DNA of 64,000 nt, taken from positions 1 through 64,000 of the forward strand of contig JAIRVP010000004.1 of assembly GCA_031253835.1 (NCBI GenBank). The letters run 5' to 3'. A program made the position numbers and the translations under genes. Numbering within the stretch: position 1 is the first letter of the stretch; each line of letters begins with the position of its first letter. Positions 41,936-58,517 of the stretch are shown one piece after another. This DNA is from Burkholderia sp. GTDB lineage: Bacteria > Pseudomonadota > Gammaproteobacteria > Burkholderiales > Burkholderiaceae. The notes beneath the pieces were generated by a model. That model had not been told where the DNA came from and made no database searches. It was given only the letters and a program-made list of their open reading frames with translations.

Positions 41936-41941
41936 CCGGTG

Positions 41942-42457
41942 TCATCCCTGGGCAGCACGCGCCCGGATGAACCGGGACGTGGCGATTTCCTCGTTTTCCT
42001 CGTCCTGCGCGTCCTCGCCCGCGAGATCGATCGCCCGCCGGATGGCCGCGATCCGTTCGCTGCACTGGTCGACCCGCTGCGTATTCCGCGCGATGTCGCG
42101 CTGGATCCGTGCGATCTCGCGGTCGACGCCGTCGATCAGGCCGTCGAGCTGCGACAGTTCCGCGACCATCGCGCGCCTGCGATCGGTCACGACGCCGATG
42201 TAGCGCACGCACTGGTTGAACGCATCGATCGAAAAGCCTTCGCTGCCGCCCGTCATCTGTGCGACACGCGCCTGGTAGCCGTCGATCACCCGGGTCTCGC
42301 CGTCGATCTGCTCGACCTTCGCCGCGCGGCGCGCGAGCAATCCCGCGCGTTCGTCGTGCCGCGCGGCGAGTTCGCTACGCCAGGTGTCGATCTCGCGCGT
42401 GCGGCGTGCGTTCGCGTGCGCAAGTGCGGCGATGCGATGACGGTTCGCGTCCGCCAT
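41942..42457 (-). CDS. sctO: SctO, T3SS ATPase stalk protein (HrpB7)
   Basis: A 171-residue, almost wholly helical, Arg/Glu-rich protein, the expected FliJ/YscO-like stalk. Long coiled-coil stretches are visible (REIDTWRSELAARHDERAG; IDGVDREIARIQRDIARN). The ATG at 42457 overlaps the last base of the sctN stop (TGATG). Its position between sctN and sctT is the Xanthomonas hrpB7 position. Such proteins diverge rapidly, so position and helical character carry much of the call. Confidence 0.82.
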   Translation of the reverse strand: MADANRHRIAALAHANARRTREIDTWRSELAARHDERAGLLARRAAKVEQIDGETRVIDGYQARVAQMTGGSEGFSIDAFNQCVRYIGVVTDRRRAMVAELSQLDGLIDGVDREIARIQRDIARNTQRVDQCSERIAAIRRAIDLAGEDAQDEENEEIATSRFIRARAAQG

Positions 42458-43803
42458 CAGCCAGCGGTCAGCGCATGCAGCTGCGCCTCGGTGTCGGCCA
42501 GCGCGACGATGTCGTCGGTGCGCTGCGACAGGAACGCCTTGATCGCGTCGTGCCGTGCAATCGCCTCGTCGGCGAGCGCATTCGCGCCCGGCTTGTATTC
42601 GCCGATCTGCAGCAGCATCTCGATCTCGCGGTACTTCGCCATCAACGCGCGCACCCGCGCGGCCGCGTCGACGTACGGCGCGGGCATTACCTGCGACATC
42701 ACGCGCGACAGGCTGCCCAGCACGTCGATGGCCGGATACTGGTTGCGCGCGGCGATGTCGCGCGACAGGATCATGTGGCCGTCGAGAATCCCGCGCACTT
42801 CCTCCGCGATCGGATCGCTGCCGCTCTCGTCTTCGGCGAGCACCGTGTAGAGCGCCGTGATCGAGCCGGTCGCGCCCATCCCGGCACGCTCCAGCAAGCG
42901 CGGCAGTTCCGCGAAGATCGACGGCGGGAAGCCGCGCCGGGCCGGCGGCTCGCCGGCGGCCAGCCCGATCTCGCGCCCGGCGCGCGCGAAGCGTGTGAGC
43001 GAATCCATCATCAGCAGCACGCGCAGCCCGCGATCGCGGAAGTACTCGGCGATCGCCGTCGCCACGTACGCCGCCTTCGCGCGCTCCATCGACGAACGGT
43101 CGGAGGTCGCGCAGACGACGACCGAGCGCGCCATGCCGGCCGGCCCGAGAATCAGTTCGACGAATTCGCGCACTTCGCGGCCGCGTTCGCCGATCAGCGC
43201 GATCACGTTGATGTCGCAGTCGGTGCCGCGCGCGAACATGCCGAGCAGCGTGCTCTTGCCGACGCCCGCGGGCGCGAAGATGCCCATCCGCTGCCCTTCC
43301 GCGAGCGTCATCATCCCGTCCACGACGCGCACGCCGGTTGCCATCGGGGTCTCGATCATGCGCCGGCTCATCGGCTCGGGCGGCGACGCGAACACCGGCT
43401 GCAGCGTGTCGGATTCGATCTCCGGGCCGCCGTCGACGGGATTGCCGAGACTGTCGATCACGCGCCCGAGCAGCATGTCGCCGACCTTGACGGCGAGCGA
43501 CCGGCCGAGCCCGACCACCTGGGTCGAGCGCGAAATGTCCGTGAGCCGCGAGAACGGCGACAGCAGCGCGCAGTCGCGCGTGAAGCCGATCACTTCCGCG
43601 TGCTGCAGCAGCGCGCCGGCCGGCGTGCGCAGCTCGCACAGTTCGCCCAGCGACACGTCGAGCCCGCCGACCTTGACGAGCGTGCCGATCACCTCGATCA
43701 CCTTGCCGGTGCGCAGCACGCCGGGCCGCGCGAGGATCTCGCGCTCGATCTCGTCGGTCAGGCGCTCGAAGCCGAGCGTGCGGTCGAACCAGCCGTCCTT
43801 CAT
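42457..43803 (-). CDS. sctN: SctN, T3SS ATPase (HrcN)
   Basis: A 448-residue FliI/YscN-type hexameric ATPase that unfolds and dechaperones substrates at the export gate. It has the Walker A APAGVGKST at 177-185, a Walker B LLMMDSLTRFARA region, the arginine-containing PPARRGFPPSIFAELPRLLERAG, and the C-terminal helical domain. It overlaps sctL by 4 bp at its start and sctO by 1 bp at its end, so stoichiometric coupled translation is likely. Confidence 0.97.
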   Translation of the reverse strand: MKDGWFDRTLGFERLTDEIEREILARPGVLRTGKVIEVIGTLVKVGGLDVSLGELCELRTPAGALLQHAEVIGFTRDCALLSPFSRLTDISRSTQVVGLGRSLAVKVGDMLLGRVIDSLGNPVDGGPEIESDTLQPVFASPPEPMSRRMIETPMATGVRVVDGMMTLAEGQRMGIFAPAGVGKSTLLGMFARGTDCDINVIALIGERGREVREFVELILGPAGMARSVVVCATSDRSSMERAKAAYVATAIAEYFRDRGLRVLLMMDSLTRFARAGREIGLAAGEPPARRGFPPSIFAELPRLLERAGMGATGSITALYTVLAEDESGSDPIAEEVRGILDGHMILSRDIAARNQYPAIDVLGSLSRVMSQVMPAPYVDAAARVRALMAKYREIEMLLQIGEYKPGANALADEAIARHDAIKAFLSQRTDDIVALADTEAQLHALTAG

Positions 43804-44606
43804 CCCGATACCTCGGCCGTCGCGGCATCGCCGCTTTCCGCTTCGTCGTCGTCCGTGCCGGCCTGGTCGAGGTAGATCGAGCGCTTCAGCGCGCGCGCGA
43901 CGGCGCTGCGCATGGCCCGCAACTGCGTGTTCAGGCTCGCGTCGACCGAGCCGAAATCGGTCTCGCACACGCACGCGCCCGGCTCGAGCTGCCGGTCGGC
44001 CACGATCGATACCGGAATCGGCCGGCCGAGGTCGCGCCATTTCGCCGCGAGCTGGTCGAACGCGGCGCGCGCCGCTTCGTAATCCTGCGGATTCACCGCG
44101 ACGCGCAGGTAGGTGGAGTTGTCGATGATCCGGTCGACGGTCGACAGCGCGCGCTCGAACAGCGCTTCGCGATCCATGCTCTGCACGATGCTCTCGACCG
44201 CCGACGCGATGATGTCCGCCAGCCGTTCGCGCATGCGGACCTGCAGGCGGCTCTGCGCATCGGTCGCATCGGCGAGCCGTTCCATCCATTCCGACAGCGC
44301 GCGGTTCGAGCCTTCGCGGTAGCCGCGCTGGTCGGCCGTCTCGTAGGTGTCGCGCGCGGCGTCGAGCAGCAGCTCGGCCTGTTCCTCGCCCGCCGCGACG
44401 ATCGCGGCGGCTTCGGCCTGCGCGTCCTCGAGCACCCGCGCGCGATCCGCGTCGAGCTGCGCGTAGGCGTCCGCGATCGACAGCAGGTGGCCGAACGTCT
44501 CGCGCCGGACCACGTCGCCGTGCACGCCGAACCGGACCGCCGGGGCGTCCTCGCCCCCGTCGTCGGCGCCGGCCGTCAGCCGGCTGCTGTTCAGCCAAAT
44601 AACCAT
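43800..44606 (-). CDS. sctL: SctL, T3SS ATPase regulator/stator (HrpB5)
   Basis: A 268-residue FliH/YscL-type protein that links SctN to the sorting platform. The start MVIWLNSSRL has GGGAG 5 nt upstream; a GTG two codons earlier would overlap that site. A charged helical region (ADRARVLEDAQAEAAAIVA; LLLDAARDTYETADQRGYR) precedes the C-terminal domain (VAVNPQDYEAARAAFDQL; DLGRPIPVSIVADRQLEPG; CETDFGSVDASLNTQLRAM). It overlaps sctK by 16 bp and sctN by 4 bp. Confidence 0.93.
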   Translation of the reverse strand: MVIWLNSSRLTAGADDGGEDAPAVRFGVHGDVVRRETFGHLLSIADAYAQLDADRARVLEDAQAEAAAIVAAGEEQAELLLDAARDTYETADQRGYREGSNRALSEWMERLADATDAQSRLQVRMRERLADIIASAVESIVQSMDREALFERALSTVDRIIDNSTYLRVAVNPQDYEAARAAFDQLAAKWRDLGRPIPVSIVADRQLEPGACVCETDFGSVDASLNTQLRAMRSAVARALKRSIYLDQAGTDDDEAESGDAATAEVSG

Positions 44607-45361
44607 GCCCACTCCCGAAGCAATTCAGGCAGACGACGAAACAGCCGGGCCGTGCCCGCTTCGTCGTGCTGCGTCGGCAATGCGTTGAGCCATGCAGGCA
44701 CGTCGATCAGGCGCGGCAACGCGAGCCGCGACAGCGGAAACGGCAGTCCGGCCGCACCTTTCAGGTCGCGCAGCACCAGCAGCATTCCTTCGATCGCGAG
44801 CGCCTCCGCATCCAGCGACGCGAGCGGCGGCATCGCGACGGCGGCCAGACGGGCCGCGTCGTTCGCGCTGTCGGTGTGCGGGCCGCTCATCAGCACGTCC
44901 ACGTCGAGCCCCGTCCAGTCGGCGAGCCGCCGTTGCGCGTGCCGGTCGATCAGCCGCCGCACCTCGCCGCGGCGCAGCAGCAGCGCGCGCATCCGCCAGA
45001 TCCGCAGCGTCAGCGGTGCGGGCGCGACGTCCAGCAGGCACGCGTTCGGCTGCGGCGCGACGGCCGCGCCGACGCGGGCGAACCCGCCCTGCGACAAGTC
45101 GGCGAACCCCGGCGGCGGCACGCCGAGCGCACGCACCAGCGCGCGCGAGCACCGGACGGCGGCGCCGGCCGGCGCGCCCGCGAGCAGTGCGCGCCAGTCC
45201 TGCAGCCGCGCTTCGGGCATGCCGAGCGAGGCCGCGATCCAGGACGGGTGGACCCAGTCGGCGACGCAATCGACGTTGTCGCGATAGCGGTCGAGCGCCG
45301 TCGCGACGCGCACGGCCGGCACGCCGGCGTCGAGCCCGGCGGGCGCCGCGAATCCCGCCAT
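44591..45361 (-). CDS. sctK: SctK, T3SS sorting-platform component (HrpB4)
   Basis: A 256-residue protein in the hrpB4 position between sctJ and sctL. It contains RYRDNVDCVADWVHPSW near the start and a hydrophobic WAWLFG end. SctK proteins link the cytoplasmic sorting platform to the inner-membrane ring. The sequence is weakly conserved across families, so synteny carries part of the call. It starts 3 bp after sctJ and overlaps sctL by 16 bp. Confidence 0.85.
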   Translation of the reverse strand: MAGFAAPAGLDAGVPAVRVATALDRYRDNVDCVADWVHPSWIAASLGMPEARLQDWRALLAGAPAGAAVRCSRALVRALGVPPPGFADLSQGGFARVGAAVAPQPNACLLDVAPAPLTLRIWRMRALLLRRGEVRRLIDRHAQRRLADWTGLDVDVLMSGPHTDSANDAARLAAVAMPPLASLDAEALAIEGMLLVLRDLKGAAGLPFPLSRLALPRLIDVPAWLNALPTQHDEAGTARLFRRLPELLREWAWLFG

Positions 45362-45364
45362 CGC

Positions 45365-46147
45365 CTACGGCTCCTTGCGGGCCGGCCGGAACCGTCCGGC
45401 GAACGCGTCGAGCCAGCCCTGCAGCGACGGTGCACCGCGTTTCGCGCCGAACCGGTACGCGGCGAAGCCGGCGCCCGCGAGAAGGGCCGCGACGGCGGCA
45501 CCGAGCACGACCATCCACCACGGGTTCGACGCGGGCAGCGCGGTTTTAGACAGCTCGACCGGATCGGCGGCGACGGTCGTGACGCTCACGTGGTCGTAGG
45601 TCAGCCCTTCGACGCTGTGCATCACGAGCGTCTTGATCTGCGGGATCAGCGTGTTGATGTCGGCGTCCGGCCGGTACTTGATGAACACGGCGGCGGACGA
45701 CGGCTTGATCTCCTGCGCGAGCGGGTCGTTGTTCGGCAGCACGATCTGCACGCGCGCGACCAGCACGCCGTCGATCTTCGACAGCGTCGACGACAGTTCC
45801 TGCGAGATGCCGTACACGAAGCGCACGCGCTCCTCGGTCGGCGTCGACACGAGGCCGTCCTTCTTGAACAGCTCGCCGAGGTCGTTGAACTTGCTGTGCG
45901 GCAGCCCGCGCGAACGCAGCACCTCCATCGCACGCACGACCTGCGCGTCGTCGACGTTGAGCATCCAGTTCTTGCCGCCGTCCGCGCTGTCCTTGCTCGC
46001 GGACACGCCCTGCTCCAGCAGCGCGACCAGCATCTCGTTCGCGTCCTGCTCGGTGAGGTTGCCGTACAGTTCCTTCTTGCATCCGCCGAGCAGCGCGATG
46101 CACAGCGCGACGACGGCAATGCGCGCCACGCGACGATTCGACTTCAT
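45365..46147 (-). CDS. sctJ: SctJ, T3SS inner-membrane ring lipoprotein (HrcJ)
   Basis: A 260-residue YscJ/FliF-family lipoprotein. The signal peptide ends in lipobox LLGGC (Cys23), followed by the conserved ELYGNLTEQDANEMLVALL, then the ring-building domain (MEVLRSRGLPHSKFNDLGEL; VQIVLPNNDPL). A C-terminal membrane helix at about 209-231 (MVVLGAAVAALLAGAGFAAY) precedes a basic tail. GAGG lies 7 nt before the ATG. Third gene of the hrpB1 operon. Confidence 0.97.
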   Translation of the reverse strand: MKSNRRVARIAVVALCIALLGGCKKELYGNLTEQDANEMLVALLEQGVSASKDSADGGKNWMLNVDDAQVVRAMEVLRSRGLPHSKFNDLGELFKKDGLVSTPTEERVRFVYGISQELSSTLSKIDGVLVARVQIVLPNNDPLAQEIKPSSAAVFIKYRPDADINTLIPQIKTLVMHSVEGLTYDHVSVTTVAADPVELSKTALPASNPWWMVVLGAAVAALLAGAGFAAYRFGAKRGAPSLQGWLDAFAGRFRPARKEP

Positions 46148-46209
46148 GGGATTGCCTCGGGCACTGCCGTTCGCGACGTTCCGCTCCGCACGCCGGCGGA
46201 CCACGGGAC

Positions 46210-46611
46210 TCATTGATTCTTCATCAGCGTCTGCACCGACGATTTCGACGATTCCGCCAGGCTCATCTTGACCTGCATGTTCATCTGCATGCTGGTCATC
46301 TCGTACATCATCTGGATGGTGCGCTGGGTCATCTCCGTCATCGACATGCCCGGCAGGTCGGCCGTCAGCTTGCCGACATCCTCGATCGTGTGCCGGAACT
46401 GCACGTCCTGTGCCTCGATGGCTTTCGACACCGACGACGACAGATGGCTGCCCGCGTGCTCGGGCGGGGCCATCGGCGCGCGCGCCATCAGCGTCTTGAA
46501 CTTGTCGCCCAGTTCGGTCGTCGCGGGGGCGGCCGTCGCGGCCGTCGCGGGCGTCGCCGCCGTTGCGTCGAGGGCGGCCGGCGCGAGCTGGCTGACGGGA
46601 TCGATGGACAT
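46210..46611 (-). CDS. sctI: SctI/HrpB2, T3SS inner-rod protein
   Basis: A 133-residue HrpB2-family protein. The N-terminus is Ala/Thr-rich and low in complexity, while the C-terminal half carries the conserved helix SMTEMTQRTIQMMYEMTSMQ and MQVKMSLAESSKSSVQTLMK, typical of inner-rod and early-substrate proteins. In Xanthomonas HrpB2 is essential for pilus formation and is itself an early secreted substrate. It sits between hrpB1 and sctJ, 62 bp from sctJ. Confidence 0.93.
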   Translation of the reverse strand: MSIDPVSQLAPAALDATAATPATAATAAPATTELGDKFKTLMARAPMAPPEHAGSHLSSSVSKAIEAQDVQFRHTIEDVGKLTADLPGMSMTEMTQRTIQMMYEMTSMQMNMQVKMSLAESSKSSVQTLMKNQ

Positions 46612-46626
46612 GTCGGTGCCTCCGGA

Positions 46627-47199
46627 TTACGCGCGCAGGAATGCGCCGCCGTGGAACATTTCGGCCGCCGGTGCGGGGTCGTGCTGCGCGGTGTGCGCCG
46701 GTTCGTCGGCGCTTGCGCCGGCTTCCTCGAGCGAGGCCGGCGCGACGAACGGCTGGCCCGGACGATGCTCGCGGATCGCGCGATCGACCTCGTCCTTCAC
46801 TTCGAGCGCCCGCACCAGTGCACGGGTGTCCTTGTTGTCCGGATCGTCCGCGAGCGCTTCGGTCGCGATCTGCCGCCACGACGGATCGCCCATCGACGAC
46901 AGCGAGAACGCGAGCAGCGCCTTCGCATAGCCGAACTGCGGGCGCATCTCGATCACCCGCAGCAGCACCTGGTTCGCTTCCTGCCACTGCCCCTTCGCCA
47001 TGCGCAGGAGGCCGTCGAGCGCATCGATCTCGACCACGCGCGGGCGCAGCAGCCGCAGCGCGTCGATCACCTGTTCGATGTCGAACAGGTCGACGTGCGT
47101 GTTCGGAAAATTGTCCAGCAGCGCCACGGAGACGGTCTCGATCAGCCCGCCAATGAATTCCGGGCTGCAGTTCAGGTACTCGGGCGTGTCTACGGTCAT
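46627..47199 (-). CDS. hrpB1: HrpB1/HrpK-family T3SS protein
   Basis: A 190-residue protein with the HrpB1_HrpK signature (EFIGGLIETVSVALLDNFP; VDLFDIEQVIDALRLLRP) and a TPR-like middle (QWQEANQVLLRVIEMRP). In Xanthomonas HrpB1 is a periplasmic peptidoglycan-binding assembly factor. First gene of the minus-strand operon. AGGAG precedes ATG 47199, and a perfect PIP box lies upstream at 47322-47346. The tail is Ala/Glu/Pro-rich and variable. Confidence 0.92.
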   Translation of the reverse strand: MTVDTPEYLNCSPEFIGGLIETVSVALLDNFPNTHVDLFDIEQVIDALRLLRPRVVEIDALDGLLRMAKGQWQEANQVLLRVIEMRPQFGYAKALLAFSLSSMGDPSWRQIATEALADDPDNKDTRALVRALEVKDEVDRAIREHRPGQPFVAPASLEEAGASADEPAHTAQHDPAPAAEMFHGGAFLRA

Positions 47200-47321
47200 G
47201 GCAACGCACTCCTGCGATGAGAGGGAAACGGGCCGGCCGGTCGTGCGGCGGGCGGCGCGCCGTCGGATGCATGCCGACGCCTGCCAACATAGCAATTCCG
47301 CCCGGGCCCGCCGCCGCGCAT

Positions 47322-47346
47322 GCGAAGCCAGCGCGCACGGGGCGAA
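47322..47346 (-). promoter_or_regulatory. Perfect PIP/hrpII box of the hrpB1-sctT operon
   Basis: On the minus strand TTCGC-N15-TTCGC (47346-47342 and 47326-47322). A TATGTT hexamer at 47291-47286 follows after exactly 31 bp, an ideal spacing for a HrpB/HrpX-dependent promoter. The hrpB1 start codon is at 47199. Confidence 0.92.
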
Positions 47347-47381
47347 GCGCGCGCGGCGCGCCGCATCGGCCGGCCGCTCGC

Positions 47382-47406
47382 TTCGGCACGCGCCGCGCCG
47401 CTTCGC
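47382..47406 (+). promoter_or_regulatory. hrpII box of the sctU-hpaA operon
   Basis: TTCGG-N15-TTCGC, satisfying TTCG-N16-TTCG (47382-47385 and 47402-47405). A weak -10-like TAAGGT begins at 47438, after 32 bp. The sctU start is at 47512. The first half-site departs from the strict PIP consensus at its fifth base. Confidence 0.82.
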
Positions 47407-47511
47407 ATCGCGCCCGCCGGCCGCGCGCGGCGGGCGCTAAGGTCGTCGCAGCGGCGCGAATGCGCGCCCCTTTTTGATCCGATCCGGCCGAGATGTGCCG
47501 CGGGCCTATCC

Positions 47512-48573
47512 ATGAGCGACGAAAAGACCGAACAGCCCACCGACAAGAAACTCGAGGACGCGCGCAAGGACGGCGAGGTATCGCGCAGCACCGACTTTTC
47601 CGACGCGCTGTCGATGGCCGGTGCGCTGATCGCGCTGGTCGCGACGGTGCCGCTGTTTCGCGACGGGCTGCACGAGCTCGTGTCGATCCCGCTGTCGTTC
47701 GTCGCGCAGGACCGCACGCTGGAGCGCATGCACGCCGACCTGTTCCGGCTCGGCGGCACCGCGCTGAAGCTGATCGTGCCGTGCGTGTTCGCCGCCGCGC
47801 TGGCGTCGACGGCCGGCTCCATCGCGCAGGCCGGCTTCCGCATCGCGACCAAGCCGGTCACGCCGAACATGCAGACGGTGAATCCGGCAAGCGGCATCAA
47901 GCGGATCTTTTCCGCGAAGAGCCTGATCGACTGCGCGAAGATGGTCGTCAAGGCGATCATCCTTGGCTGGGTGATGTGGCAGTCGATCAAGTGGCTGTTC
48001 CCGCTCGTGGTCGGGTCGATCTACCAGCCGCTCGGCGGGCTGTCGCTGATGTTCTGGGACATGCTGGCGAAGCTCGGCGCGATCTCCGTCGGCATTTTCC
48101 TGCTGGTCGGCGCCGTCGACATCAAGCTGCAGGGCTTCCTGTTCATCAAGAAGATGAAGATGAGCAAGGACGAGGTGAAGCGCGAGCACAAGGAGCAGGA
48201 AGGCAGCCCGGAACTCAAGGGCGAGCGCCGCCGCCTCGCGCGCGAACTGGCGAGTACGCCGCCGAAGCCGCGCGTGGGCCTGGCCAACGTGCTGGTCGTC
48301 AATCCGACCCACTTCGCGGTCGCGGTGCGCTATGCGCCCGACGAACACCCGCTGCCCGTCGTGATCGCGAAAGGCATGGATGCGGACGCGGCGTCGCTGC
48401 GGCGCGCGGCGCGCGACGCCGGCGTGCCGATCATCGGCAACCCGCCCGTCGCGCGTGCGCTGTACAAGGTCACGCTGAACCAGCCGATCCCGGAAGAGCT
48501 GTTCGAGACGGTCGCGGCGATCCTGCGCTGGGTCGACGCGATCGGCTCGCCCTCCACCCCACCCCTTCACTGA
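47512..48573 (+). CDS. sctU: SctU, T3SS autoproteolytic substrate-switch protein (HrcU)
   Basis: A 353-residue FlhB/YscU-family protein. The N-terminus MSDEKTEQPTDKKLEDARKD is characteristic, four membrane segments follow, and the cytoplasmic domain has the self-cleavage site NPTH at 264-267 (cleavage between Asn264 and Pro265). Cleavage lets SctP switch export from early to late substrates. First gene of the plus-strand core operon, with an hrpII box about 105 bp upstream. Confidence 0.97.
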   Translation: MSDEKTEQPTDKKLEDARKDGEVSRSTDFSDALSMAGALIALVATVPLFRDGLHELVSIPLSFVAQDRTLERMHADLFRLGGTALKLIVPCVFAAALASTAGSIAQAGFRIATKPVTPNMQTVNPASGIKRIFSAKSLIDCAKMVVKAIILGWVMWQSIKWLFPLVVGSIYQPLGGLSLMFWDMLAKLGAISVGIFLLVGAVDIKLQGFLFIKKMKMSKDEVKREHKEQEGSPELKGERRRLARELASTPPKPRVGLANVLVVNPTHFAVAVRYAPDEHPLPVVIAKGMDADAASLRRAARDAGVPIIGNPPVARALYKVTLNQPIPEELFETVAAILRWVDAIGSPSTPPLH

Positions 48574-48581
48574 GCGTTCCG

Positions 48582-50675
48582 ATGTTCAAGGCCCTCAAGT
48601 TCCCGGCAGGCGGCGAAATCGGCATCGCGCTGCTGGTGACCGCGATCATCTCGCTGATGATCCTGCCGCTGCCGCCCGAGCTGATCGACATCCTGCTCGC
48701 GATCAACATCACGATCAGCGTCACGCTGCTGATGGTCACGATGTACGTGCCGGACATCGTGTCGCTGTCCGCGTTTCCGTCGCTGCTGCTGTTCACGACG
48801 CTCTACCGGCTCTCGCTGAACATCGCGTCGACCAAGTCGATCCTGCTGCATGCCGAGGCCGGCAACATCATCGACAGCTTCGGCAAGCTGGTGGTGGGCG
48901 GCAACCTCGTCGTCGGCCTGGTCGTGTTCATCATCATCACGACCGTGCAGTTCATCGTGATCGCGAAAGGCTCGGAACGCGTGGCCGAGGTCGGCGCGCG
49001 CTTCACGCTCGATGCGATGCCGGGCAAGCAGATGAGCATCGACGCCGACCTGCGCGCGAACCTGCTGAGCCCGGAAGAAGCGCGCCACCGCCGCGCGACG
49101 CTGGCCATCGAGAGCCAGCTGCACGGCGGGATGGATGGCGCGATGAAGTTCGTGAAAGGCGATGCGATCGCCGGCCTCCTGATTACGACCATCAACATCG
49201 TCGCGGGCATCGCGGTCGGTGTCGCCTATCACGGGATGAGCGCGGGCGAGGCGGCGAACCGCTTCTCGGTGCTGTCGGTCGGCGATGCGATGGTGTCGCA
49301 GATTCCGTCGCTGCTGCTGTCGGTCGCGGCCGGCGTGATGATCACGCGCGTCGCGGACGAGCGCAGCCACAAGCCGCGCTCGCTCGGCGAGGAAATCGGC
49401 CGCCAGCTCGGCTCGAGTTCGCGCGCGCTGTATTTCGCCGCGCTGCTGCTGCTCGGCTTCGCGCTGGTGCCGGGCTTCCCCGTCGTGCTGTTCCTGCTGC
49501 TGTCCGCGATCCTCGCGTTCATCGCGTACAAGCTGAACGACCGGCAGTCGGAGCACGCGCCGGCCCAGGACGGCTTGCAGGCGATGCAGCGTTCCGGTGC
49601 GAAGGCCGACACGCCCGCGATCATGACGCGCGCGCCGCAGTTCGCCTGCCCGATCGGCGTGCGTGTCGCCCCCGACCTGATGCAGCGGCTGGTGCTGCCC
49701 GTGCTCGACAAGTCGTTCGGCGCGGAGCGCGCGCGGCTGCAGGAGGAACTGGGGCTGCCGTTTCCCGGCATCACGATGTGGACCCATGCGGGCCTGCCCG
49801 CGATGCATGCGGAAATCCTGATCCACGACGTGCCGCATCTGCTGGTCGAGCTGCCGGCCGGCATGGTCATGCTGCCGGAGCCCGAGCGCGTCGCGACGGG
49901 CGTGCCGCTGTCGGCCGAGGACGTGCAGCAGCGCGACGCGCTCGTCGCGAAGGGCGAACCGCGCCCGCCGATCGATCCCGGCGGCCGGCCGACCCACTGG
50001 GTCGACGCGCGCGAGGCGCCGGCGCGCATTCCGGCATGGGGCCCCGAGCAGGTCATCGCGCACGCGTCGGTCGCGCTGATGCGCCATCATGCGACGCAGT
50101 TCCTCGGCATCCAGGAAGTGCAGTGGATCCTGGAGCAGCTCGGCGAGGATCACCCGGGGCTCGTCGCGGAAGTCCAGAAGGTGCTGCCGCCGCAGCGGAT
50201 CGCCGACGTGCTGCGGCGCCTGCTCGAGGAGCAGATCTCGATCCGCAACGTGCGGACCATCATGGAAAGCCTGATCGCGTGGGGGCCGAAGGAAAAGGAC
50301 ATGCTGATGCTGACCGAGTACGTGCGCGGCGACCTGTCGCGCTTCCTCGCGCATCGCGCGACGCGGGGCCAGCGCACGCTGCCCGCCGTGCTGCTCGACC
50401 TGCCGATCGAACAGCATATCCGGCAGGCGATCAAGCAGACGCCGACGGGCAATTTCCTGGCGCTCGCGCCGGACGAGATCGGCTTGCTGATCGACAAGAT
50501 CCAGGCGGTCGTCGGGCCGCAGCCGACCGACGGCGTCGCGCTCGTCACGTCGATGGACATCCGCCGTTACGTGCGCCGGATGATCGAGGCGAAGCTGGGC
50601 TGGCTGCCCGTGTACTCGTACCAGGAGCTGGGCGAGCACGTCGACCTGCGCCCGATCGGCCGCATCACCGTCTGA
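48582..50675 (+). CDS. sctV: SctV, T3SS export gate major protein (HrcV)
   Basis: A 697-residue FlhA/LcrD-family protein. The N-terminal half has the many membrane helices (ILPLPPELIDILLAINITIS; SLLLFTTLYRLSLNIASTK), including the FHIPEP-region equivalent (KGSERVAEVGARFTLDAMPG; KQMSIDADLRANLL). The C-terminal half is the cytoplasmic nonameric ring that receives chaperone-effector complexes (QWILEQLGEDHPGLVAEVQK). The ATG lies 8 bp after sctU. This is the homologue of the published B. cenocepacia bcscV. Confidence 0.97.
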   Translation: MFKALKFPAGGEIGIALLVTAIISLMILPLPPELIDILLAINITISVTLLMVTMYVPDIVSLSAFPSLLLFTTLYRLSLNIASTKSILLHAEAGNIIDSFGKLVVGGNLVVGLVVFIIITTVQFIVIAKGSERVAEVGARFTLDAMPGKQMSIDADLRANLLSPEEARHRRATLAIESQLHGGMDGAMKFVKGDAIAGLLITTINIVAGIAVGVAYHGMSAGEAANRFSVLSVGDAMVSQIPSLLLSVAAGVMITRVADERSHKPRSLGEEIGRQLGSSSRALYFAALLLLGFALVPGFPVVLFLLLSAILAFIAYKLNDRQSEHAPAQDGLQAMQRSGAKADTPAIMTRAPQFACPIGVRVAPDLMQRLVLPVLDKSFGAERARLQEELGLPFPGITMWTHAGLPAMHAEILIHDVPHLLVELPAGMVMLPEPERVATGVPLSAEDVQQRDALVAKGEPRPPIDPGGRPTHWVDAREAPARIPAWGPEQVIAHASVALMRHHATQFLGIQEVQWILEQLGEDHPGLVAEVQKVLPPQRIADVLRRLLEEQISIRNVRTIMESLIAWGPKEKDMLMLTEYVRGDLSRFLAHRATRGQRTLPAVLLDLPIEQHIRQAIKQTPTGNFLALAPDEIGLLIDKIQAVVGPQPTDGVALVTSMDIRRYVRRMIEAKLGWLPVYSYQELGEHVDLRPIGRITV

Positions 50676-50684
50676 CGCCGCGCC

Positions 50685-51335
50685 GTGTCCCGCATCGACA
50701 GCCGCGACGCGCGAGCGCTGCCGCCCCCGGACGACGCGAGCCCGCGGTCCGCGCGCGGCGCGCGCCGGTTCGACTATGCGGCGCTGCTTGCCGCGCGCCG
50801 GTCCGTGGTGCGCCCGGTGTCCGATGGACCGCCCGCGTCGCGCCAGCAGGACGATCCGTCGGAGGAACCCGATCCGTCGTCGGCGCGTGCGGAGCATTTC
50901 CCGCTGATCTCGAACGAACGCGATACGCCCGCGTCCGACCCGGCGCCGACCGCTGCCGAGCTGGCCGAATGCCGGAGCATCGCCGCGCGCATCGCGAGCG
51001 CCGCCGCGCCGATCGCGACGGTCACGCTGCAGGAACAGCGCGACCACCTCGGCCTGCTCGGCGTGCTGTCGCGCGAGATCGCGGCGTTCTGCGGCGATCC
51101 CGCCGTCGCGGCCGGCGGGCAATGGGAAGCCCATGTCGTGCTGAACGACCGGATCCTGGCGTCCACCGAGCTGCACGTGTCGCTTTCGCATTTCGACCTG
51201 CAGCTTCGGTTCGATACGCAGGATCGCGAAGCACGGCAGTTACTCTTGGCCCACAGCGTCGCGCTCGAGCACGAACTCGACACGATGCTGCGGGCATGGG
51301 GGCAGCCGCGGACCGTCCGTCTCACGGTGTGGTAG
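50685..51335 (+). CDS. sctP: SctP/HpaP-type T3SS substrate-specificity switch protein
   Basis: A 216-residue protein with a GTG start 9 bp after sctV. The N-terminal ~100 residues are disordered and rich in Pro/Ser/Arg, while the C-terminal part forms a compact domain (GQWEAHVVLNDRILASTELH; LSHFDLQLRFDTQDREAR), as in HpaP/HpaC and YscP-like proteins. It sits between sctV and sctQ, matching hpaP in Ralstonia and Xanthomonas. It should interact with the cleaved C-terminal domain of SctU. Confidence 0.85.
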   Translation: MSRIDSRDARALPPPDDASPRSARGARRFDYAALLAARRSVVRPVSDGPPASRQQDDPSEEPDPSSARAEHFPLISNERDTPASDPAPTAAELAECRSIAARIASAAAPIATVTLQEQRDHLGLLGVLSREIAAFCGDPAVAAGGQWEAHVVLNDRILASTELHVSLSHFDLQLRFDTQDREARQLLLAHSVALEHELDTMLRAWGQPRTVRLTVW

Positions 51336-51415
51336 CCGGCCCCGCGTGAATTGCCTCGAGCGCGGCGCCCGTCGGGCGCCCTGCGCGGGCCAACGGCGGC
51401 ATTTTCCGGCAACGG

Positions 51416-52582
51416 ATGAAACTGATTCGGCATTCGATCATTCCCGGCGGCGCGGCGTTCGCGCCGCTCGTCCCGCCACCGCTCGACGTGGCGAGCGCGC
51501 ACGCGTCGCGCCGGCTGTTCGATGCGCGCCTGCCGGTATTCCTGCGCGACACGCTCGGCGTGCGCGATGTTCATTGCCGTTTCGCGACCGGCACGCCGGA
51601 CTACGCCGACCCGGCCATCGCGGAGCTGCGGATCGACACGCCGGCCGGCCCGGTGAGCGCGCACCTGCTGCTCGATCTGGAACGCTACCCCGCGCTGTCG
51701 GTCTGCGCGTGGTCCGAGGCCCAGGCCGCCGAACGGCGCACGAGCCCCGAAATGACGCTGCGCAACGCCGTCGCGAACGTGTTGTGCGGGCCGCTGCTGG
51801 GCTGTCTCGATACGCTCGGCCTGAGCGGCGCGCAGGTCGTCGCGGTCAGGCGCGGCGCGTGGCCGGCGCCGCGTCCGCACAGCGTGACCGTCGCGCTGTC
51901 GCTCACGCTGCACGACCGGCGGCACGACGCGCTCGTGCAGCTGCCGGGCCGTTGCATCGAGTGGCTGGATACGTGCCTGGCGCGCACCGCGCGCGCCGGA
52001 TGGTTCGACGCGTCGCTGCGCGTGCCGGGCAGTCTCGTGCTCGGCGTGAAGGCGCTGTCGGTCGACACGCTGCAGAGCCTGCGCGGCGGCGACATCCTGC
52101 TGCGCGTGGTCGATCCGTCGCTCGACGCCGCGTGGCTGCATGGCGCCGGCGCACGTGCGGACAGCGCGCCGCACCCCGTTGCCTTCGCGACCTGGGGCAG
52201 CGCGGGCCTCGCGCACGGCCGGGCCGCGGTGGCCGTGCAACCCCGAACGATCACTTTGTTGAAGGAACCCGTGATGACGGAAACCACCGTCCTGGACACG
52301 CCGGAAGCCGGGCTCGATGCGCCCGACGGCGAACGCGCCGTCGAAGTGGGCGAACTCGAGCTGCCGGTGCAGTTCGTCGCCGATACCGTTGCGCTGACGA
52401 TCGACGAGGTGTCGTCGCTCGCGCCCGGCTACGTGATCGAGCTGCCGACCGCGATCACCGACCTGACGCTCAAGCTCGTCGCGCACGGCCAGGTGATCGG
52501 CTACGGCGAGCTGGTCGGGATCGGCGAACACGTCGGCATCCGCATTCTCCGCATGGCGCACGAGCATGGTTCAGTACAGTGA
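51416..52582 (+). CDS. sctQ: SctQ, T3SS cytoplasmic sorting-platform ring (HrcQ)
   Basis: A 388-residue FliM/FliN-like protein. The N-terminal two thirds are variable; the C-terminal SpoA domain (about 305-385) has VEVGELELPVQFVADTVALT and GYVIELPTAITDLTLKLV, then GYGELVGIGEHVGIRI. The gene is full length in contrast to the split HrcQa/HrcQb of Pseudomonas syringae. It carries an internal ribosome-binding site and start described separately. It overlaps sctR by 17 bp. Confidence 0.94.
   Translation: MKLIRHSIIPGGAAFAPLVPPPLDVASAHASRRLFDARLPVFLRDTLGVRDVHCRFATGTPDYADPAIAELRIDTPAGPVSAHLLLDLERYPALSVCAWSEAQAAERRTSPEMTLRNAVANVLCGPLLGCLDTLGLSGAQVVAVRRGAWPAPRPHSVTVALSLTLHDRRHDALVQLPGRCIEWLDTCLARTARAGWFDASLRVPGSLVLGVKALSVDTLQSLRGGDILLRVVDPSLDAAWLHGAGARADSAPHPVAFATWGSAGLAHGRAAVAVQPRTITLLKEPVMTETTVLDTPEAGLDAPDGERAVEVGELELPVQFVADTVALTIDEVSSLAPGYVIELPTAITDLTLKLVAHGQVIGYGELVGIGEHVGIRILRMAHEHGSVQ
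52274..52582 (+). CDS. Probable internal translation product of sctQ (SctQ-C)
   Basis: Within sctQ, AAGGA lies 8 nt before an in-frame ATG at codon 287, with a GTG codon immediately before it. Initiation there would produce a 102-residue protein consisting of little more than the SpoA domain. Internal initiation of this kind is documented for Yersinia YscQ, Salmonella SpaO and Xanthomonas HrcQ, where the short form is needed for the sorting platform. Here it is inferred from the placement of the site only. Confidence 0.6.
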   Translation: MTETTVLDTPEAGLDAPDGERAVEVGELELPVQFVADTVALTIDEVSSLAPGYVIELPTAITDLTLKLVAHGQVIGYGELVGIGEHVGIRILRMAHEHGSVQ

Positions 52583-53216
52583 TCTTTCCGGCCTGCTGCT
52601 GATCGTCGTCGCGATCGGCCTGTTGCCGTTCGTCGCGATGGTCGTGACGTCGTATGCGAAGGTGGTCGTCGTGCTCGGCCTGCTGCGCAATGCGCTCGGT
52701 GTGCAGCAGGTGCCGCCCAACATGGTACTCAACGGCATCGCGATCCTCGTGTCGGTGTACGTGATGGCGCCCATCGGCATGATGGCGGCGAAGACGCTGA
52801 GCAACCAGACGATCTCGCCGCAATCGTCGCAGGCCGTGATCCAGGCGGCCGACGCCGCGCGCGAGCCGTTCCGGCAGTTTCTGATCAAGCACACGCAGGA
52901 ACGCGAGAAGCGCTTCTTCATCCGCTCGGCGTCGATCGTGTGGCCGCAGGAGGAAGCGCAGGCGCTGAAGGAAACCGACCTGATCGTGCTCGCGCCGGCC
53001 TTCACGCTGACCGAGCTCACCGATGCGTTCAAGATCGGCTTCCTGCTGTATGTGACCTTCATCGTGATCGACCTGATCATCGCGAACGTGCTGCTGTCGA
53101 TGGGACTCAACCAGGTGTCGCCGACCAACGTCGCGATCCCGTTCAAGCTGCTGCTGTTCGTCGTGATGGATGGATGGTCGGCGCTGATCCACGGGCTCGT
53201 GCTGACCTACAAGTGA
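52566..53216 (+). CDS. sctR: SctR, T3SS export gate protein (HrcR)
   Basis: A 216-residue FliP/YscR-family protein. Four hydrophobic segments and the conserved VVTSYAKVVVVLGLLRNALG, QVPPNMVLNGIAI and APAFTLTELTDAFKIGFLLY make the assignment secure. Five copies form the core of the export gate with SctS and SctT. The ATG lies inside the end of sctQ, 17 bp overlap. Confidence 0.97.
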   Translation: MVQYSDLSGLLLIVVAIGLLPFVAMVVTSYAKVVVVLGLLRNALGVQQVPPNMVLNGIAILVSVYVMAPIGMMAAKTLSNQTISPQSSQAVIQAADAAREPFRQFLIKHTQEREKRFFIRSASIVWPQEEAQALKETDLIVLAPAFTLTELTDAFKIGFLLYVTFIVIDLIIANVLLSMGLNQVSPTNVAIPFKLLLFVVMDGWSALIHGLVLTYK

Positions 53217-54383: not shown

Positions 54384-54504
54384 ATCCGCGGCCGGCCGCG
54401 CGCTTTTAGCCTCTACATTCACAGCGAGACGGACGATTCGCGCCCGTCGCGCACGGCGCCGCCGATTCGGCATACGGACCTGATATCGATTGAACGCTTC
54501 GCTC

Positions 54505-55614
54505 ATGAAACAGCTACGGATACTGACGGGATTCCATGCGGGCGCGATGCTGCAGCTCGCGCCGGGTCAGCATCGGGTTCATGGCGGCGCCGATGCGGAT
54601 ATCCGGCTGACGGACTGGACCGGCGCGGACGTGACGCTCGACGTCGATCCGTCCGGCGTCGTGCGCGCGATCACGCTTGTCGACGTGCCGGACGGCGAGC
54701 CGGCGGATGCCGCGGCCGAACCGGAAACGGTGATCCTGGTCGACTTCGTGCCGATGCGGTTCGGCGAGACAATCCTGTGCGTGGGCCCCGACGACGTGCC
54801 GTGGCCGTCGGATCTCGATTTGCTGTCGACGCTGCTGACGCGGCCGGCCGACGCGCGGGTCGACGCCGAACGGCGCAAGCGGCGCCGCTACTACGGCGCC
54901 CTCGTCGCGTGCATCGCGATCGGCATCGTCGCGGGCACCGCCGTGCTGCTGACCACCGCGCCCGACAGCGAGGCCGCGCTGCGGCACGGCGCCGACTACC
55001 GGACCACCCGCATCCAGGATGCGCTCGCGGCCGCGCACATGACCGAGCTGCAGGTGCGCACGGTCGGGAACACGAGTGTCGTGACGGGCATGGTCGCCAA
55101 CCTGGCCGACGACCAGCTGGTCCGCTCGACGCTCGCGAAGATCGCGTCGAAGGACATCGTGCGCAGCTATGACGTGGCGCAGAACGCGGTGCACAGCATC
55201 GAGGATTCGCTCGGCATCGCGGGCGTGCGCGTCAAGTACCTGGGCAACGGCGAATTCGCGATCACCGGCACGGTCGACAGCAAGGACGCGCTCGACAAGG
55301 CCGTCACGCGCGTGCGCGCCGACCTCGATTCGAACATCCGGCGACTCGTCGTGCAGGCGGTCGAGAATCCCGGCCATGCCGCGCCCGTGACCGGACAGTA
55401 TTCGGAGATCGTGTCGTCGGACACGGTGCAGTACACGCAGACGCCCGACGGCGTCAAGCATATCTACGTGACGGATGTGCCGGCCGATCCGGTGCCGGCA
55501 TCCGGCGTGCCGGCCGCCTCCGGCCCGGCGGCCCCGTCCGTCGACAGCAGCACGATCACGCGCAGCGCGGAGCAGGTGCGCGCCGCGCCCCACCCGGCTG
55601 CGCCGGACTCCTGA
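54505..55614 (+). CDS. sctD: SctD, T3SS inner-membrane ring protein (HrpD5)
   Basis: A 369-residue YscD/HrpD5-type protein. A short N-terminal cytoplasmic FHA-like domain (LRILTGFHAGAMLQLAPGQH; GADADIRLTDW) is followed by a membrane helix at about 130-150 (YYGALVACIAIGIVAGTAVLL region), then periplasmic ring domains (NTSVVTGMVANLADDQLV; NGEFAITGTVDSKDALDKA) and a Pro/Ser-rich tail. ATG 54505 is used; a TTG five codons upstream is possible and neither has a strong site. The hrpII box at 54359 drives it. Confidence 0.9.
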   Translation: MKQLRILTGFHAGAMLQLAPGQHRVHGGADADIRLTDWTGADVTLDVDPSGVVRAITLVDVPDGEPADAAAEPETVILVDFVPMRFGETILCVGPDDVPWPSDLDLLSTLLTRPADARVDAERRKRRRYYGALVACIAIGIVAGTAVLLTTAPDSEAALRHGADYRTTRIQDALAAAHMTELQVRTVGNTSVVTGMVANLADDQLVRSTLAKIASKDIVRSYDVAQNAVHSIEDSLGIAGVRVKYLGNGEFAITGTVDSKDALDKAVTRVRADLDSNIRRLVVQAVENPGHAAPVTGQYSEIVSSDTVQYTQTPDGVKHIYVTDVPADPVPASGVPAASGPAAPSVDSSTITRSAEQVRAAPHPAAPDS

Positions 55615-56295: not shown

Positions 56296-56751
56296 ATGAA
56301 CGATCCCCGCTATCTCGAACTCGTGGCCCAGTTCTGCGCGGTCGTCGGCCTTCACGACGTCGACTACGTGCAGGAAACCGGCTCGGTCGAGGTCGAAGGG
56401 TTCGAGGTGCGCCTCGAGCACGTCGAGCGCGACCAGGAGGCGATCTACGCGAACTTCCACTTCGGCACCGTCACGGCCGGCCGCACGCTGCATATTTTCC
56501 GGCTGATGCTGGAAGCCAACCTGCTGATCTACGCGCAGGACCAGGCGCAGCTCGGCATCGACGCCGACACGGGCTCGATCGTCCTGATCCTGCGGCTGCC
56601 GTTCGATCCCGATTTCAGCGGCGCGGATCTCGCAGACCTGCTCGTTCACTATGCCGACCACGGCCGCTACTGGCGGCAGAACATCATCGAGTCGAGCGAC
56701 GAGATGTTCGAAGGCATCGCGTCCGGCGAATTCTTCTGGCTGCGGGCGTGA
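56296..56751 (+). CDS. hpaB: HpaB, T3SS general effector chaperone/exit-control protein
   Basis: A 151-residue acidic protein of the CesT-like chaperone fold. It has RYLELVAQFCAVVGLHDVDY at the start, GRTLHIFRLMLEANLLIYAQ in the middle, and the conserved GSIVLILRLPFDPDFSGADL and DEMFEGIASGEFFWLRA. In Xanthomonas HpaB binds many effectors and prevents premature translocon export. It is last in the sctD operon and convergent with the formyltransferase gene. Confidence 0.92.
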   Translation: MNDPRYLELVAQFCAVVGLHDVDYVQETGSVEVEGFEVRLEHVERDQEAIYANFHFGTVTAGRTLHIFRLMLEANLLIYAQDQAQLGIDADTGSIVLILRLPFDPDFSGADLADLLVHYADHGRYWRQNIIESSDEMFEGIASGEFFWLRA

Positions 56752-56800: not shown

Positions 56801-57655
56801 TCACGGCCCGATGTCCGCGCGCCGGGCCAGGCTCAGCGCGCTCCATTCGAGCAGCGCGACGAAGCCGTCCGGTACCGCGATCACGGTCCAGCGGCGGCTG
56901 ACGTGCGCGATCGCACCCGGCTCGAAGGCATGCCGTTCGTGCCAGCCGACGGCGCGCCGCACGTAGAGCACGCTGCCGCCGACATGCGCGACGCATTCGT
57001 GCAGCCCGTTGGCGCGGACCTGCGTCATCACGCGATCCACCGGCTGCTTGAAATCGAGCGTGCGGTCGGCGTCCGACGGCATCGGCCAATGGCTGCCGCC
57101 CGCCTGCGGCGTGCGCGCGGCCCACAGCGCGTCGAAGCGATACGCCAGCTGCCGCGCGAGCCGGCAGCCGGCCATCTGCACCTTGAGCTGCAGGCTTTCG
57201 TGGCATTCGTCGGCGGCGAGTGCGAAGCGCTCCTGCACGAGGATCTCGCCGGTGTCGAATTCCGGCGCGATCCGGTGACAGGTCACGCCCCATTCGCGGT
57301 GACCGTCGAGGATCGCGCGCATCAGCGGATACGGGCCGCGCGCCTCCGGCAGCGGCGCAGGATGGAAGTTGATCGCGTGGCGGACGTACGGCGTCCAGTC
57401 CGGAATGCGCCAGCCGTATCCGGCGACGACCAGCACGTCGCAGTCGAGATCGCGCAGCGTGCGCAGCGCCGCCTCGTCGATGCGCGACAGGTGCAGCGGC
57501 ACGCCGTGCCGCGTCGCATGCGACACGATCTCCGCATTCGAATTCACGCGGTCGTCGGTCACGAAGCTGAACAGCGATACGGGTGTCCATCCGGCGCTCA
57601 CGAACGTCTCGAGCACACCGTGAAACAGATCGAATCCTGCGAGTGCAAAGCGCAT
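56801..57655 (-). CDS. Formyltransferase-family protein with PIP box
   Basis: A 284-residue member of the formyl_transferase N family (methionyl-tRNA formyltransferase/PurN type). The catalytic triad is intact: Asn96 and His98 in INFHPAPLPEARG and Asp134 in PEFDTGEILV. The family C-terminal domain is present in short form (QPVDRVMTQVRANGLHE). It is not the housekeeping Fmt, which is longer and elsewhere. GGAG lies 7 nt before the ATG. A perfect PIP box at 57768-57792 puts it in the HrpB regulon. It may formylate an amino sugar or other amine used in envelope or effector metabolism; the substrate is unknown. Confidence 0.85.
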   Translation of the reverse strand: MRFALAGFDLFHGVLETFVSAGWTPVSLFSFVTDDRVNSNAEIVSHATRHGVPLHLSRIDEAALRTLRDLDCDVLVVAGYGWRIPDWTPYVRHAINFHPAPLPEARGPYPLMRAILDGHREWGVTCHRIAPEFDTGEILVQERFALAADECHESLQLKVQMAGCRLARQLAYRFDALWAARTPQAGGSHWPMPSDADRTLDFKQPVDRVMTQVRANGLHECVAHVGGSVLYVRRAVGWHERHAFEPGAIAHVSRRWTVIAVPDGFVALLEWSALSLARRADIGP

Positions 57656-57767
57656 GCGATATCTCCATCGGAGGAACGGCGGCGATCGCCGCCACCCACA
57701 CTGCCGGCCGTGCGGCGCCGCGCATCCGCCAGCATGTCATGGCGCGCCGCGTCATCCGTGCCGCGCG

Positions 57768-57792
57768 GCGAACCCGACGCTGCCTGCGCGAA
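57768..57792 (-). promoter_or_regulatory. Perfect PIP/hrpII box of the formyltransferase gene
   Basis: On the minus strand TTCGC-N15-TTCGC (57792-57788 and 57772-57768). A -10-like TGACAT lies at 57739-57734, after 29 bp, a weaker hexamer and spacing than at other boxes. The start codon is 79 bp further on. An imperfect plus-strand box lies 5 bp away. Confidence 0.8.
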
Positions 57793-57796
57793 GACG

Positions 57797-57887: not shown

Positions 57888-58517
57888 ATGCGACTCCCCC
57901 TGTTGACCCACCTCGAAACCGAATGGCTGATACTCCGCCCGTTGATGCCGCGCGATGCGCCCGCGCTCTTCGAGCAGATGCTGAGCGACCCCGAGACGAT
58001 GCAGTACCTGCCGATCGGGCGTCACGGCGATCTCGCGCAAACCCACGCGTATATCGACGAAGCGCGCCGCGGCTGGCGTGACCGGACGCTGATCCGCTTT
58101 GCATGCGAGTGCCGCGCCACCGGGCAGCTCGCGGGCGTGATCGAGCTCACGCCCGACCTGCCGTGCGTGCGCCTGTCGGTGATGATCGCGAAACGCGGCG
58201 GCACGCGGCGCCGGCGCGCCTGCCTGATGGCGCTGCAGGAACTGCTCGGCTGGCTGCTCGGCCAGCGCGGCGTGCAGCGGATCTATGCGCACTGCGTGGC
58301 CGGCGGCCCGGCCGGACACTGCATCGAGCGCCTGGGCTTCCGGTGCGAAGCGGTGCTGAAGCGTCACGAGCCGCAGCCGAATCGCGACCTGGACGCGGCG
58401 GACTGCCTGCTTTACGTGTTGACCCGGCACGCCAGCCCGGCCGCGCCGGCGCCCGATGCCGGCACCTGGCTGCGCGACCTGCTGCGCGATTCGTCCGGCG
58501 GCCGCGCGCGGCTGTGA
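57888..58517 (+). CDS. GNAT acetyltransferase, RimJ/RimL type
   Basis: A 209-residue GNAT protein. It has TEWLILRPLMPRDAPALFEQM at the start and the acetyl-CoA region near GVIELTPDLPCVRLSVMIAK with RGGTRRRRACLMALQELLG; the end GHCIERLGFRCEAVLKRHE is typical of the RimJ/RimL group acting on protein N-termini or small amines. It lies inside the T3SS neighbourhood, divergent from the formyltransferase gene with a shared 232-bp spacer. It may modify a secreted or structural component, but no partner is shown. Housekeeping RimJ/RimL is not excluded. Confidence 0.82.
   Translation: MRLPLLTHLETEWLILRPLMPRDAPALFEQMLSDPETMQYLPIGRHGDLAQTHAYIDEARRGWRDRTLIRFACECRATGQLAGVIELTPDLPCVRLSVMIAKRGGTRRRRACLMALQELLGWLLGQRGVQRIYAHCVAGGPAGHCIERLGFRCEAVLKRHEPQPNRDLDAADCLLYVLTRHASPAAPAPDAGTWLRDLLRDSSGGRARL

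What the first reader, a model, noticed from the sequence alone, without database searches (positions are those of the whole stretch)
56801..57792. A formyltransferase gene under a perfect PIP box: candidate new member of the T3SS regulon
The sequence shows TTCGC-N15-TTCGC on the minus strand at 57768-57792, oriented toward an enzyme with intact Asn-His-Asp catalytic residues. This element is the HrpB/HrpX target in Ralstonia and Xanthomonas. Formyltransferases are not core or known accessory T3SS parts, so the enzyme may modify an envelope sugar, a secreted peptide or a small molecule needed with secretion. The -10 hexamer is weak (TGACAT after 29 bp), so promoter strength is uncertain.
Basis: partly seen in the sequence, partly recalled or inferred. 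Interest (0 to 1): 0.75.

Follow-up and report, generated by a model that had tools for sequence, protein, structure and literature searches.

The report
Formyltransferase gene switched with Hrp secretion
Beside a syringe-like protein secretion system in a Burkholderia lies a gene for an unstudied formyltransferase enzyme whose switch has the signature of the secretion system's master regulator, and that switch recurs in distant relatives where the gene sits next to such a system, so the enzyme is probably an optional helper of secretion with an unknown target.

Summary
Box plus -10 occurs 8 times in the 84 kb examined, against 0.125 expected.

Comparison adds more than the single site could. 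Among 15 orthologs in Hrp-type T3SS loci, 12 have an exact box plus -10 and 2 have a one-mismatch box plus -10; G058 has none. Of 14 non-linked orthologs none has either. Between deep lineages the DNA around the box is no more alike than chance.

The gene is accessory: 21 of 31 Burkholderia genomes with HrpB2 lack it. The locus has an HrpB-like regulator; bcsc-type was not shown. The enzyme keeps Asn96/His98/Asp134 and falls below the curated cut-offs of all seven NCBIfam models it matched.

Best reading: a solitary formyltransferase recruited into the HrpB regulon, making a cytosolic N-formyl product of unknown identity. HrpB dependence and substrate remain untested. A new member of a known regulon type.

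The parts
56801..57655 (-). Formyltransferase-family gene, 284 aa, ATG start
   Evidence: Pfam Formyl_trans_N 60.4 bits; Formyl_trans_C 19.9 bits, below its cut-off of 21.1; N96/H98/D134 invariant in 29 of 29; dN/dS 0.15-0.24 in 10 pairs of orthologs
57768..57792 (-). Perfect PIP box TTCGC-N15-TTCGC, starting 137 bp upstream of the ATG
   Evidence: recurs in relatives
57731..57736 (-). -10-like hexamer CATGCT (YANNNT), 31 bp after the PIP box
   Evidence: identical in the 4 lineage A members that keep the box, window included
57663..57666 (-). Shine-Dalgarno-like GGAG
   Evidence: read directly from sequence
39510..40973 (-). HrpB-like AraC-family regulator, expected activator of the box
   Evidence: HTH_18 58 bits; relatives in other Hrp loci; the name HrpB is inferred from family and locus
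37686..39470 (-). T3SS secretin (SctC)
   Evidence: Pfam Secretin, Secretin_N
41108..47295 (-). T3SS genes: SctT-like, HrpB7-containing ORF, SctL-like, HrpB4, HrpB2, HrpB1; PIP box plus -10 at 47286-47346, so the HrpB1 start is probably downstream of the ORF start called here
   Evidence: Pfam; box; operon structure inferred
47320..53216 (+). T3SS genes including SctU-, SctQ- and SctR-like; PIP box plus -10 at 47382-47443, inside the called ORF, whose Pfam match begins at residue 67
   Evidence: Pfam for SctU and SctQ and SctR (FliP family, 211 bits); box
54490..55614 (+). SctD-like gene with PIP box plus -10 at 54359-54419
   Evidence: NCBIfam HrpD5 286.4 bits, just under its cut-off of 300; box
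56296..56751 (+). CesT-type chaperone gene, convergent with the formyltransferase gene
   Evidence: Pfam CesT 30.9 bits, cut-off 22
57888..58517 (+). GNAT acetyltransferase gene, divergent from the formyltransferase gene; no match to it in the 40 kb read around the G058 locus
   Evidence: Pfam Acetyltransf_3 52.2 bits; synteny

Best explanation
The gene is a single-gene transcription unit of the HrpB regulon of an Hrp-type T3SS. When HrpB is active it binds the PIP box at 57768-57792 and starts transcription from the CATGCT -10, so the formyltransferase is made together with the secretion apparatus. The enzyme stays in the bacterial cytosol and moves a formyl group, presumably from N10-formyl-tetrahydrofolate, to a primary amine on a small molecule or sugar that helps the cell during host contact. 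Shown here: gene, box, -10, their recurrence in T3SS-linked orthologs, intact catalytic residues and purifying selection. Inferred: HrpB binding and activation, the formyl donor, cytosolic location, and any substrate. Evolutionarily, a solitary enzyme found also outside T3SS loci was recruited into Hrp clusters and mostly kept its PIP-box promoter there.
For: Exact box plus -10 in 12 of 15 T3SS-linked orthologs and a one-mismatch box plus -10 in 2 more, against 0 of 14 non-linked for either; no exact box in 0.5 kb upstream of 7 order-level orthologs (7 of the 8 found). When window and G020, G162 or G228 are lined up on their boxes, the 60 bp upstream match at 18, 12 and 17 of 60 and the 16 bp between half-sites at 3, 3 and 5 of 16: the box persists in otherwise unrelated DNA (the half-sites match by construction, since the boxes were found by pattern). 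In the 4 lineage A members with a box the -10 is 6/6 invariant, the gap before it 16/31 and the spacer 8/15. Neighbours are convergent and divergent, so the gene stands alone. An HrpB-like regulator is in the same locus. Linked orthologs plus G369 group together at 92/95. dN/dS 0.15-0.24 in 10 pairs. The genome has two other formyltransferase-family matches on other contigs.
Against: No expression data. Absent from 21 of 31 HrpB2-bearing Burkholderia genomes and 72 of 88 in the family sample. G058 keeps the gene in a T3SS locus without a box, G369 keeps it away from HrpB2 and without a box. Orthologs share ancestry, so the 12 boxes are not 12 independent events; on the tree the box label needs 3 changes. 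The 30 bp just upstream of the box are also well kept in lineage A, 24/30, so within that lineage the box does not stand out much. A perfect box alone predicts regulation only about half the time: 41 of 78 in Acidovorax citrulli (PMC6913199, passages). Substrate unknown.
Confidence: 0.72

Rival explanations
1. The enzyme is itself a type III effector injected into the host cell, where it formylates something or uses formyl-folate.
For: It lies among PIP-box genes; in G020, G076, G162, G176 and G228 it sits near HrpB1/HrpK-like or TPR genes, an HrpB-like regulator and putative secreted proteins.
Against: All 15 linked orthologs have their ATG at the aligned first residue, as do 12 of 14 non-linked ones, and residue 2 of the family profile aligns with residue 5 of Fmt, so no N-terminal signal region was added. 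Orthologs occur in 7 sampled genomes without HrpB2.
Confidence: 0.1
2. A second methionyl-tRNA formyltransferase that boosts initiation when the secretion genes are on.
For: Fmt proteins are the closest solved sequences (E 4.6e-24), aligning over both domains.
Against: 77.5 bits against an Fmt cut-off of 201.5; an early loop is about 4 residues shorter than in Fmt (its importance for tRNA binding is recalled). A separate match on contig C36 in a 346-aa frame is probably the housekeeping Fmt (name inferred).
Confidence: 0.07
3. The box is a chance match or a relic; the gene is a passenger of the island.
For: 84 box matches genome-wide; gene absent from many Hrp loci; one linked ortholog lacks the box.
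Against: Recurrence in lineages with unrelated flanks; 0 of 14 controls; purifying selection.
Confidence: 0.08

Closest known systems
PIP-box (hrpII-box) genes of HrpB/HrpX regulons in Ralstonia, Xanthomonas, Acidovorax and Burkholderia
   Same: TTCGB-N15-TTCGB box, YANNNT 30-32 bp downstream (definitions seen in PMC8565462 and PMC6913199), HrpB-like regulator in the same locus
   Different: The product is a formyltransferase; seven full-text searches found no paper on such a gene. HrpB dependence not measured
Methionyl-tRNA formyltransferase (Fmt, TIGR00460)
   Same: Catalytic Asn-His-Asp, two-domain layout, nearest in the PDB by profile
   Different: 77.5 bits against cut-off 201.5; shorter loop
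ArnA formyltransferase domain and sugar N-formyltransferases
   Same: Same superfamily
   Different: Scores far below curated cut-offs; no sugar-nucleotide pathway family among the 10 window ORFs scanned
Siderophore formyltransferases (e.g. mbaE, named in PMC12838130, one passage)
   Same: Burkholderia accessory formyltransferases
   Different: No siderophore synthase family among the 20 window ORFs scanned; no direct sequence comparison made

Membership tests
HrpB/PIP-box regulon | Perfect TTCGB-N15-TTCGB box upstream, facing the gene | tested here: met
   57768-57792 minus
HrpB/PIP-box regulon | YANNNT 30-32 bp downstream of the box | tested here: met
   CATGCT at 31 bp
HrpB/PIP-box regulon | Cognate AraC-type regulator in the genome | tested here: met
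   39510-40973, HTH_18 58 bits; name HrpB inferred
HrpB/PIP-box regulon | Site present where the gene is T3SS-linked and absent where not | tested here: met
   12 exact and 2 one-mismatch of 15, against 0 of 14; exception G058
HrpB/PIP-box regulon | Transcript depends on HrpB | not testable with these tools
   needs a hrpB deletion
Formyl_trans_N superfamily | Pfam score over cut-off and Asn-His-Asp | tested here: met
   60.4 against 26.1 bits; N96 H98 D134 in 29 of 29
Fmt (TIGR00460) | Curated cut-off | tested here: not met
   77.5 against 201.5 bits
ArnA, PurN, PRK06988, dTDP-sugar formyltransferase and two PurU-type models | Curated cut-offs | tested here: not met
   47/777, 42.4/150.1, 44/316, 29.7/238, 22/223, 21.7/285.95 bits
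Type III effector | N-terminal secretion region beyond the enzyme fold | tested here: not met
   ATG at the aligned first residue in 15 of 15 linked orthologs; family residue 2 aligns with Fmt residue 5
Type III effector | Translocation into host cells | not testable with these tools
   needs a translocation assay
Core T3SS component | Present in nearly all loci of the type | tested here: not met
   10 of 31 HrpB2-bearing genus genomes; 16 of 88 in the family sample

The most novel reading that the evidence does not exclude
A dedicated type III formyltransferase: an enzyme co-regulated with the injectisome that N-formylates an exported appendage or translocon subunit, or the glycan or peptidoglycan around it, as a previously unseen chemical step of type III export. 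As faint support, relatives of the enzyme lie directly after the FliP-FliQ-FliR end of a flagellar export operon in G337, after FliR in G317, and directly after a MurJ gene in G959; against it, other relatives lie beside RND efflux pumps or with no telling neighbour.
Probability: 0.1. Interest if true: 0.8.

Novelty: new member of a known kind. Interest (0 to 1): 0.45.

Why it matters
If HrpB dependence holds, Hrp-type secretion in several Burkholderiaceae genera comes with a metabolic enzyme outside the usual apparatus, chaperone and effector classes. Its single-gene unit, intact active site and recurrent promoter make it an easy knockout and metabolomics target, and its substrate would show what chemistry the bacterium makes only when secreting.

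Tried and rejected
Box alone as evidence: too weak (84 in the genome, reversed control 36). Effector reading: disfavoured for lack of an N-terminal extension. Second Fmt: disfavoured on the curated cut-off and the loop.

Neighbours of non-T3SS orthologs as a clue to substrate (18 contexts, genes within about 4.5-6.5 kb listed): no single answer. An AcrB-family pump with an outer-membrane efflux gene lies beside the gene in 4 of them, G080 and three genomes of another family, G890, G961 and G1018; a different AcrB-family gene lies about 2 kb off in G949. Others have MurJ (G959), APS kinase and sulfotransferase (G100), flagellar export genes (G317, G337), or a short-chain dehydrogenase in the Methylobacterium-type loci (checked with Pfam only for G551). 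The pump genes were not pursued further.

Structure: mean pLDDT 48.6 from a 4-row alignment, too poor, so no fold search was made. PADLOC: no match. sigma-70 and terminator scan of 56700-57900: nothing. Plasmid collection at E 1e-20: one hit, Methylobacterium bullatum, 44.6%. One search read minus-strand loci in the wrong orientation and was replaced. In scripts the first residue of translated proteins was written as M whatever the codon, so the invariant M1 is not a result for G337 and G317, whose codon there is not a start. The family, phylum and order searches are samples of 398, 398 and 270 genomes.

Full report
What is there. On the minus strand, 56801-57655 encodes a 284-aa protein with Formyl_trans_N at 60.4 bits, cut-off 26.1, and a weak Formyl_trans_C at 19.9 bits, cut-off 21.1. 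The ATG at 57653-57655 is preceded by GGAG. The box TTCGCGCAGGCAGCGTCGGGTTCGC is at 57768-57792, and CATGCT, which fits YANNNT, starts 31 bp after it. The published definition used for Burkholderia sensu lato is TTCG[CGT]-N15-TTCG[CGT]-N(30,32)-[CT]AN3T (PMC8565462, passages and sections 12 and 16 read), so the site fits in full.

Chance. The box alone occurs 4 times in the window against 0.66 expected and 84 times in the genome against 36 for the reversed pattern. In Acidovorax citrulli 41 of 78 perfect boxes went with significant HrpX regulation (PMC6913199, passages). The box alone is therefore modest evidence. Box plus -10 occurs 8 times in the 84 kb of window and following sequence against 0.125 in 40 Markov simulations. 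Besides the formyltransferase site the eight are: two between the HrpB1 and SctU genes, facing each way; one before SctD; one inside the ORF ahead of SctQ; a divergent pair at 36434-36636; and one at 66188-66248 beyond the window.

The locus. Neighbouring genes encode a secretin, an AraC-family regulator, SctT-like, HrpB7, SctL-like, HrpB4, HrpB2, HrpB1, SctU and SctQ proteins, SctR, an SctD-like protein just under the HrpD5 cut-off and a CesT chaperone. This is the Hrp kind with an HrpB-like regulator. In the genus 31 of 65 genomes have HrpB2. I fetched the HrpB2 region of 20 of the 21 that lack the formyltransferase (G031 was not fetched): 9 of the 20 show an HrpB relative at E 1e-30 or better, the other 11 none even at 1e-5 in the 9-15 kb taken. 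So HrpB-bearing loci with and without the enzyme both exist.

Distribution. In the genus 10 of 65 genomes, the window's own included, have an ortholog at E below 1e-100; the other matches are weak relatives at E 1e-19 or worse. All 10 are among the 31 with HrpB2. Five are 80-100% identical (lineage A: window, Burkholderia sp. BCC1644, B. catarinensis, B. anthina, G058; names from matching contig lengths) and five 55-57% (lineage B). In the family sample 23 of 398 genomes in 7 of 25 genera have it and 88 of 398 have HrpB2; 16 have both, 7 the enzyme alone, 72 HrpB2 alone. In the phylum sample 6 of 398, own included, the other five of one genus; in the order sample 9 of 270, own included.

Linkage. 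In 12 of the 15 cases I call linked, HrpB2 lies on the same contig, roughly 10-40 kb away. In the other three the contig itself shows T3SS genes: G004 has SctD- and CesT-like genes beside it; G076 has an HrpB1/HrpK protein at 87.5 bits and the end of an AraC-family regulator; G360 has neighbours homologous to those flanking the lineage B gene, one of them an HrpB1/HrpK match under its cut-off. G369 has HrpB2 on another contig and is counted as not linked.

Promoter comparison. Looking 600 bp upstream of 29 orthologs: exact box plus -10 in 12 of 15 linked; the same arrangement with one mismatch (TTCC) in G360 and G076; nothing in G058, where the divergent acetyltransferase gene of the other lineage A members is missing. 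Of the 14 non-linked (G369, seven without HrpB2, six alphaproteobacterial rows of which two are near-identical) none has either form; for G337 and G317 the true start is unclear. Seven order-level orthologs, of eight found, have no exact box in 500 bp (their HrpB2 status was not tested). Lined up on the box, the window shares 18 of 60 upstream bases with G020, 12 of 60 with G162 and 17 of 60 with G228; agreement of the half-sites there is by construction. In the four lineage A members with the box the -10 is 6/6 invariant, the spacer 8/15, the gap 16/31, and the 30 bp upstream 24/30.

Evolution. The tree groups the linked orthologs plus G369 (92/95, short of the tool's star) apart from those without HrpB2 (88/84) and the alphaproteobacterial ones (100/100). 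The linkage label needs 2 changes and the box label 3. The simplest story is one recruitment of a solitary enzyme, with later loss of linkage in G369 and of the box in G058; the base is poorly resolved, so this is not proven. HrpB of lineages A and B is only about 41% identical while the enzyme is 55-57%, so transfer between Hrp clusters is possible. dN/dS is 0.15-0.24 in 10 pairs.

The enzyme. Asn96, His98 and Asp134 are invariant in 29 of 29. It falls below the curated cut-offs of all seven NCBIfam models it matched. The nearest solved sequences are Fmt proteins, but the profile leaves out about four residues of an early Fmt loop. The genome has two further family matches on contigs C36 and C80, by frame length probably Fmt and ArnA (inference). 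All 15 linked orthologs have ATG at the aligned first residue, which argues against an added secretion signal. The structure model was too poor to use. Outside T3SS loci the neighbours differ: AcrB-family pump plus outer-membrane efflux gene in 4 of 18 contexts read, MurJ, sulfotransferase or flagellar export genes in single lineages. They do not point to one substrate.

Mechanism. Most likely HrpB activates this single-gene unit and the cytosolic enzyme formylates an unknown amine. Gene, promoter elements, their recurrence and the active site are shown; binding, activation, donor and substrate are inferred.

Literature. Searches pairing formyltransferase with HrpB, PIP box, HrpX, hrp gene cluster, HrpL, Paraburkholderia T3SS or harpin gave no paper on such a gene. 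The two hits were checked by passage and concern PurN and a siderophore gene; the two hits were seen only as a listing, as were those except the papers named here. Word searches of the main text found no 'formyl' in PMC12580581, PMC11153758, PMC9452761, PMC8565462, PMC1557829 and PMC6913199. Only open-licence papers were searched; figures and supplements were not read, so the gene could appear there as an unnamed arrow.

Noticed in passing
36434-36636: Divergent pair of PIP box plus -10 sites; the genes they face were not identified (their ORFs were not scanned). A similar pair lies in G056 and G006.
   Followed up: partly
L051 2188-2248 (66188-66248 counted from the window start): PIP box plus -10 facing a long minus-strand ORF that runs back into the window end (63574-66405).
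   Followed up: no
62278-63420: Minus-strand ORF of 380 aa, rich in Gly and Asn, with an internally repeated segment; looks like a secreted protein.
   Followed up: no
58555-59064: BamE-family protein with partial similarity (65.2 bits, cut-off 350) to TpgA, upstream of the formyltransferase in the T3SS locus.
   Followed up: no
L078 7589-10726 and L079 9911-11802: The formyltransferase relative lies directly after flagellar export genes ending in FliR in G337 and G317 (Pfam); its start codon is unclear.
   Followed up: partly
L074 9446-16438; L114, L116, L118: A formyltransferase relative lies beside an outer-membrane efflux gene and an AcrB-family pump in G080 and in three genomes of another family.
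   Followed up: partly
60393-61487: Minus-strand protein with an OmpR-type DNA-binding domain, possible HrpG; matched in G056 and G006 but not in the 40 kb read around G058.
   Followed up: no
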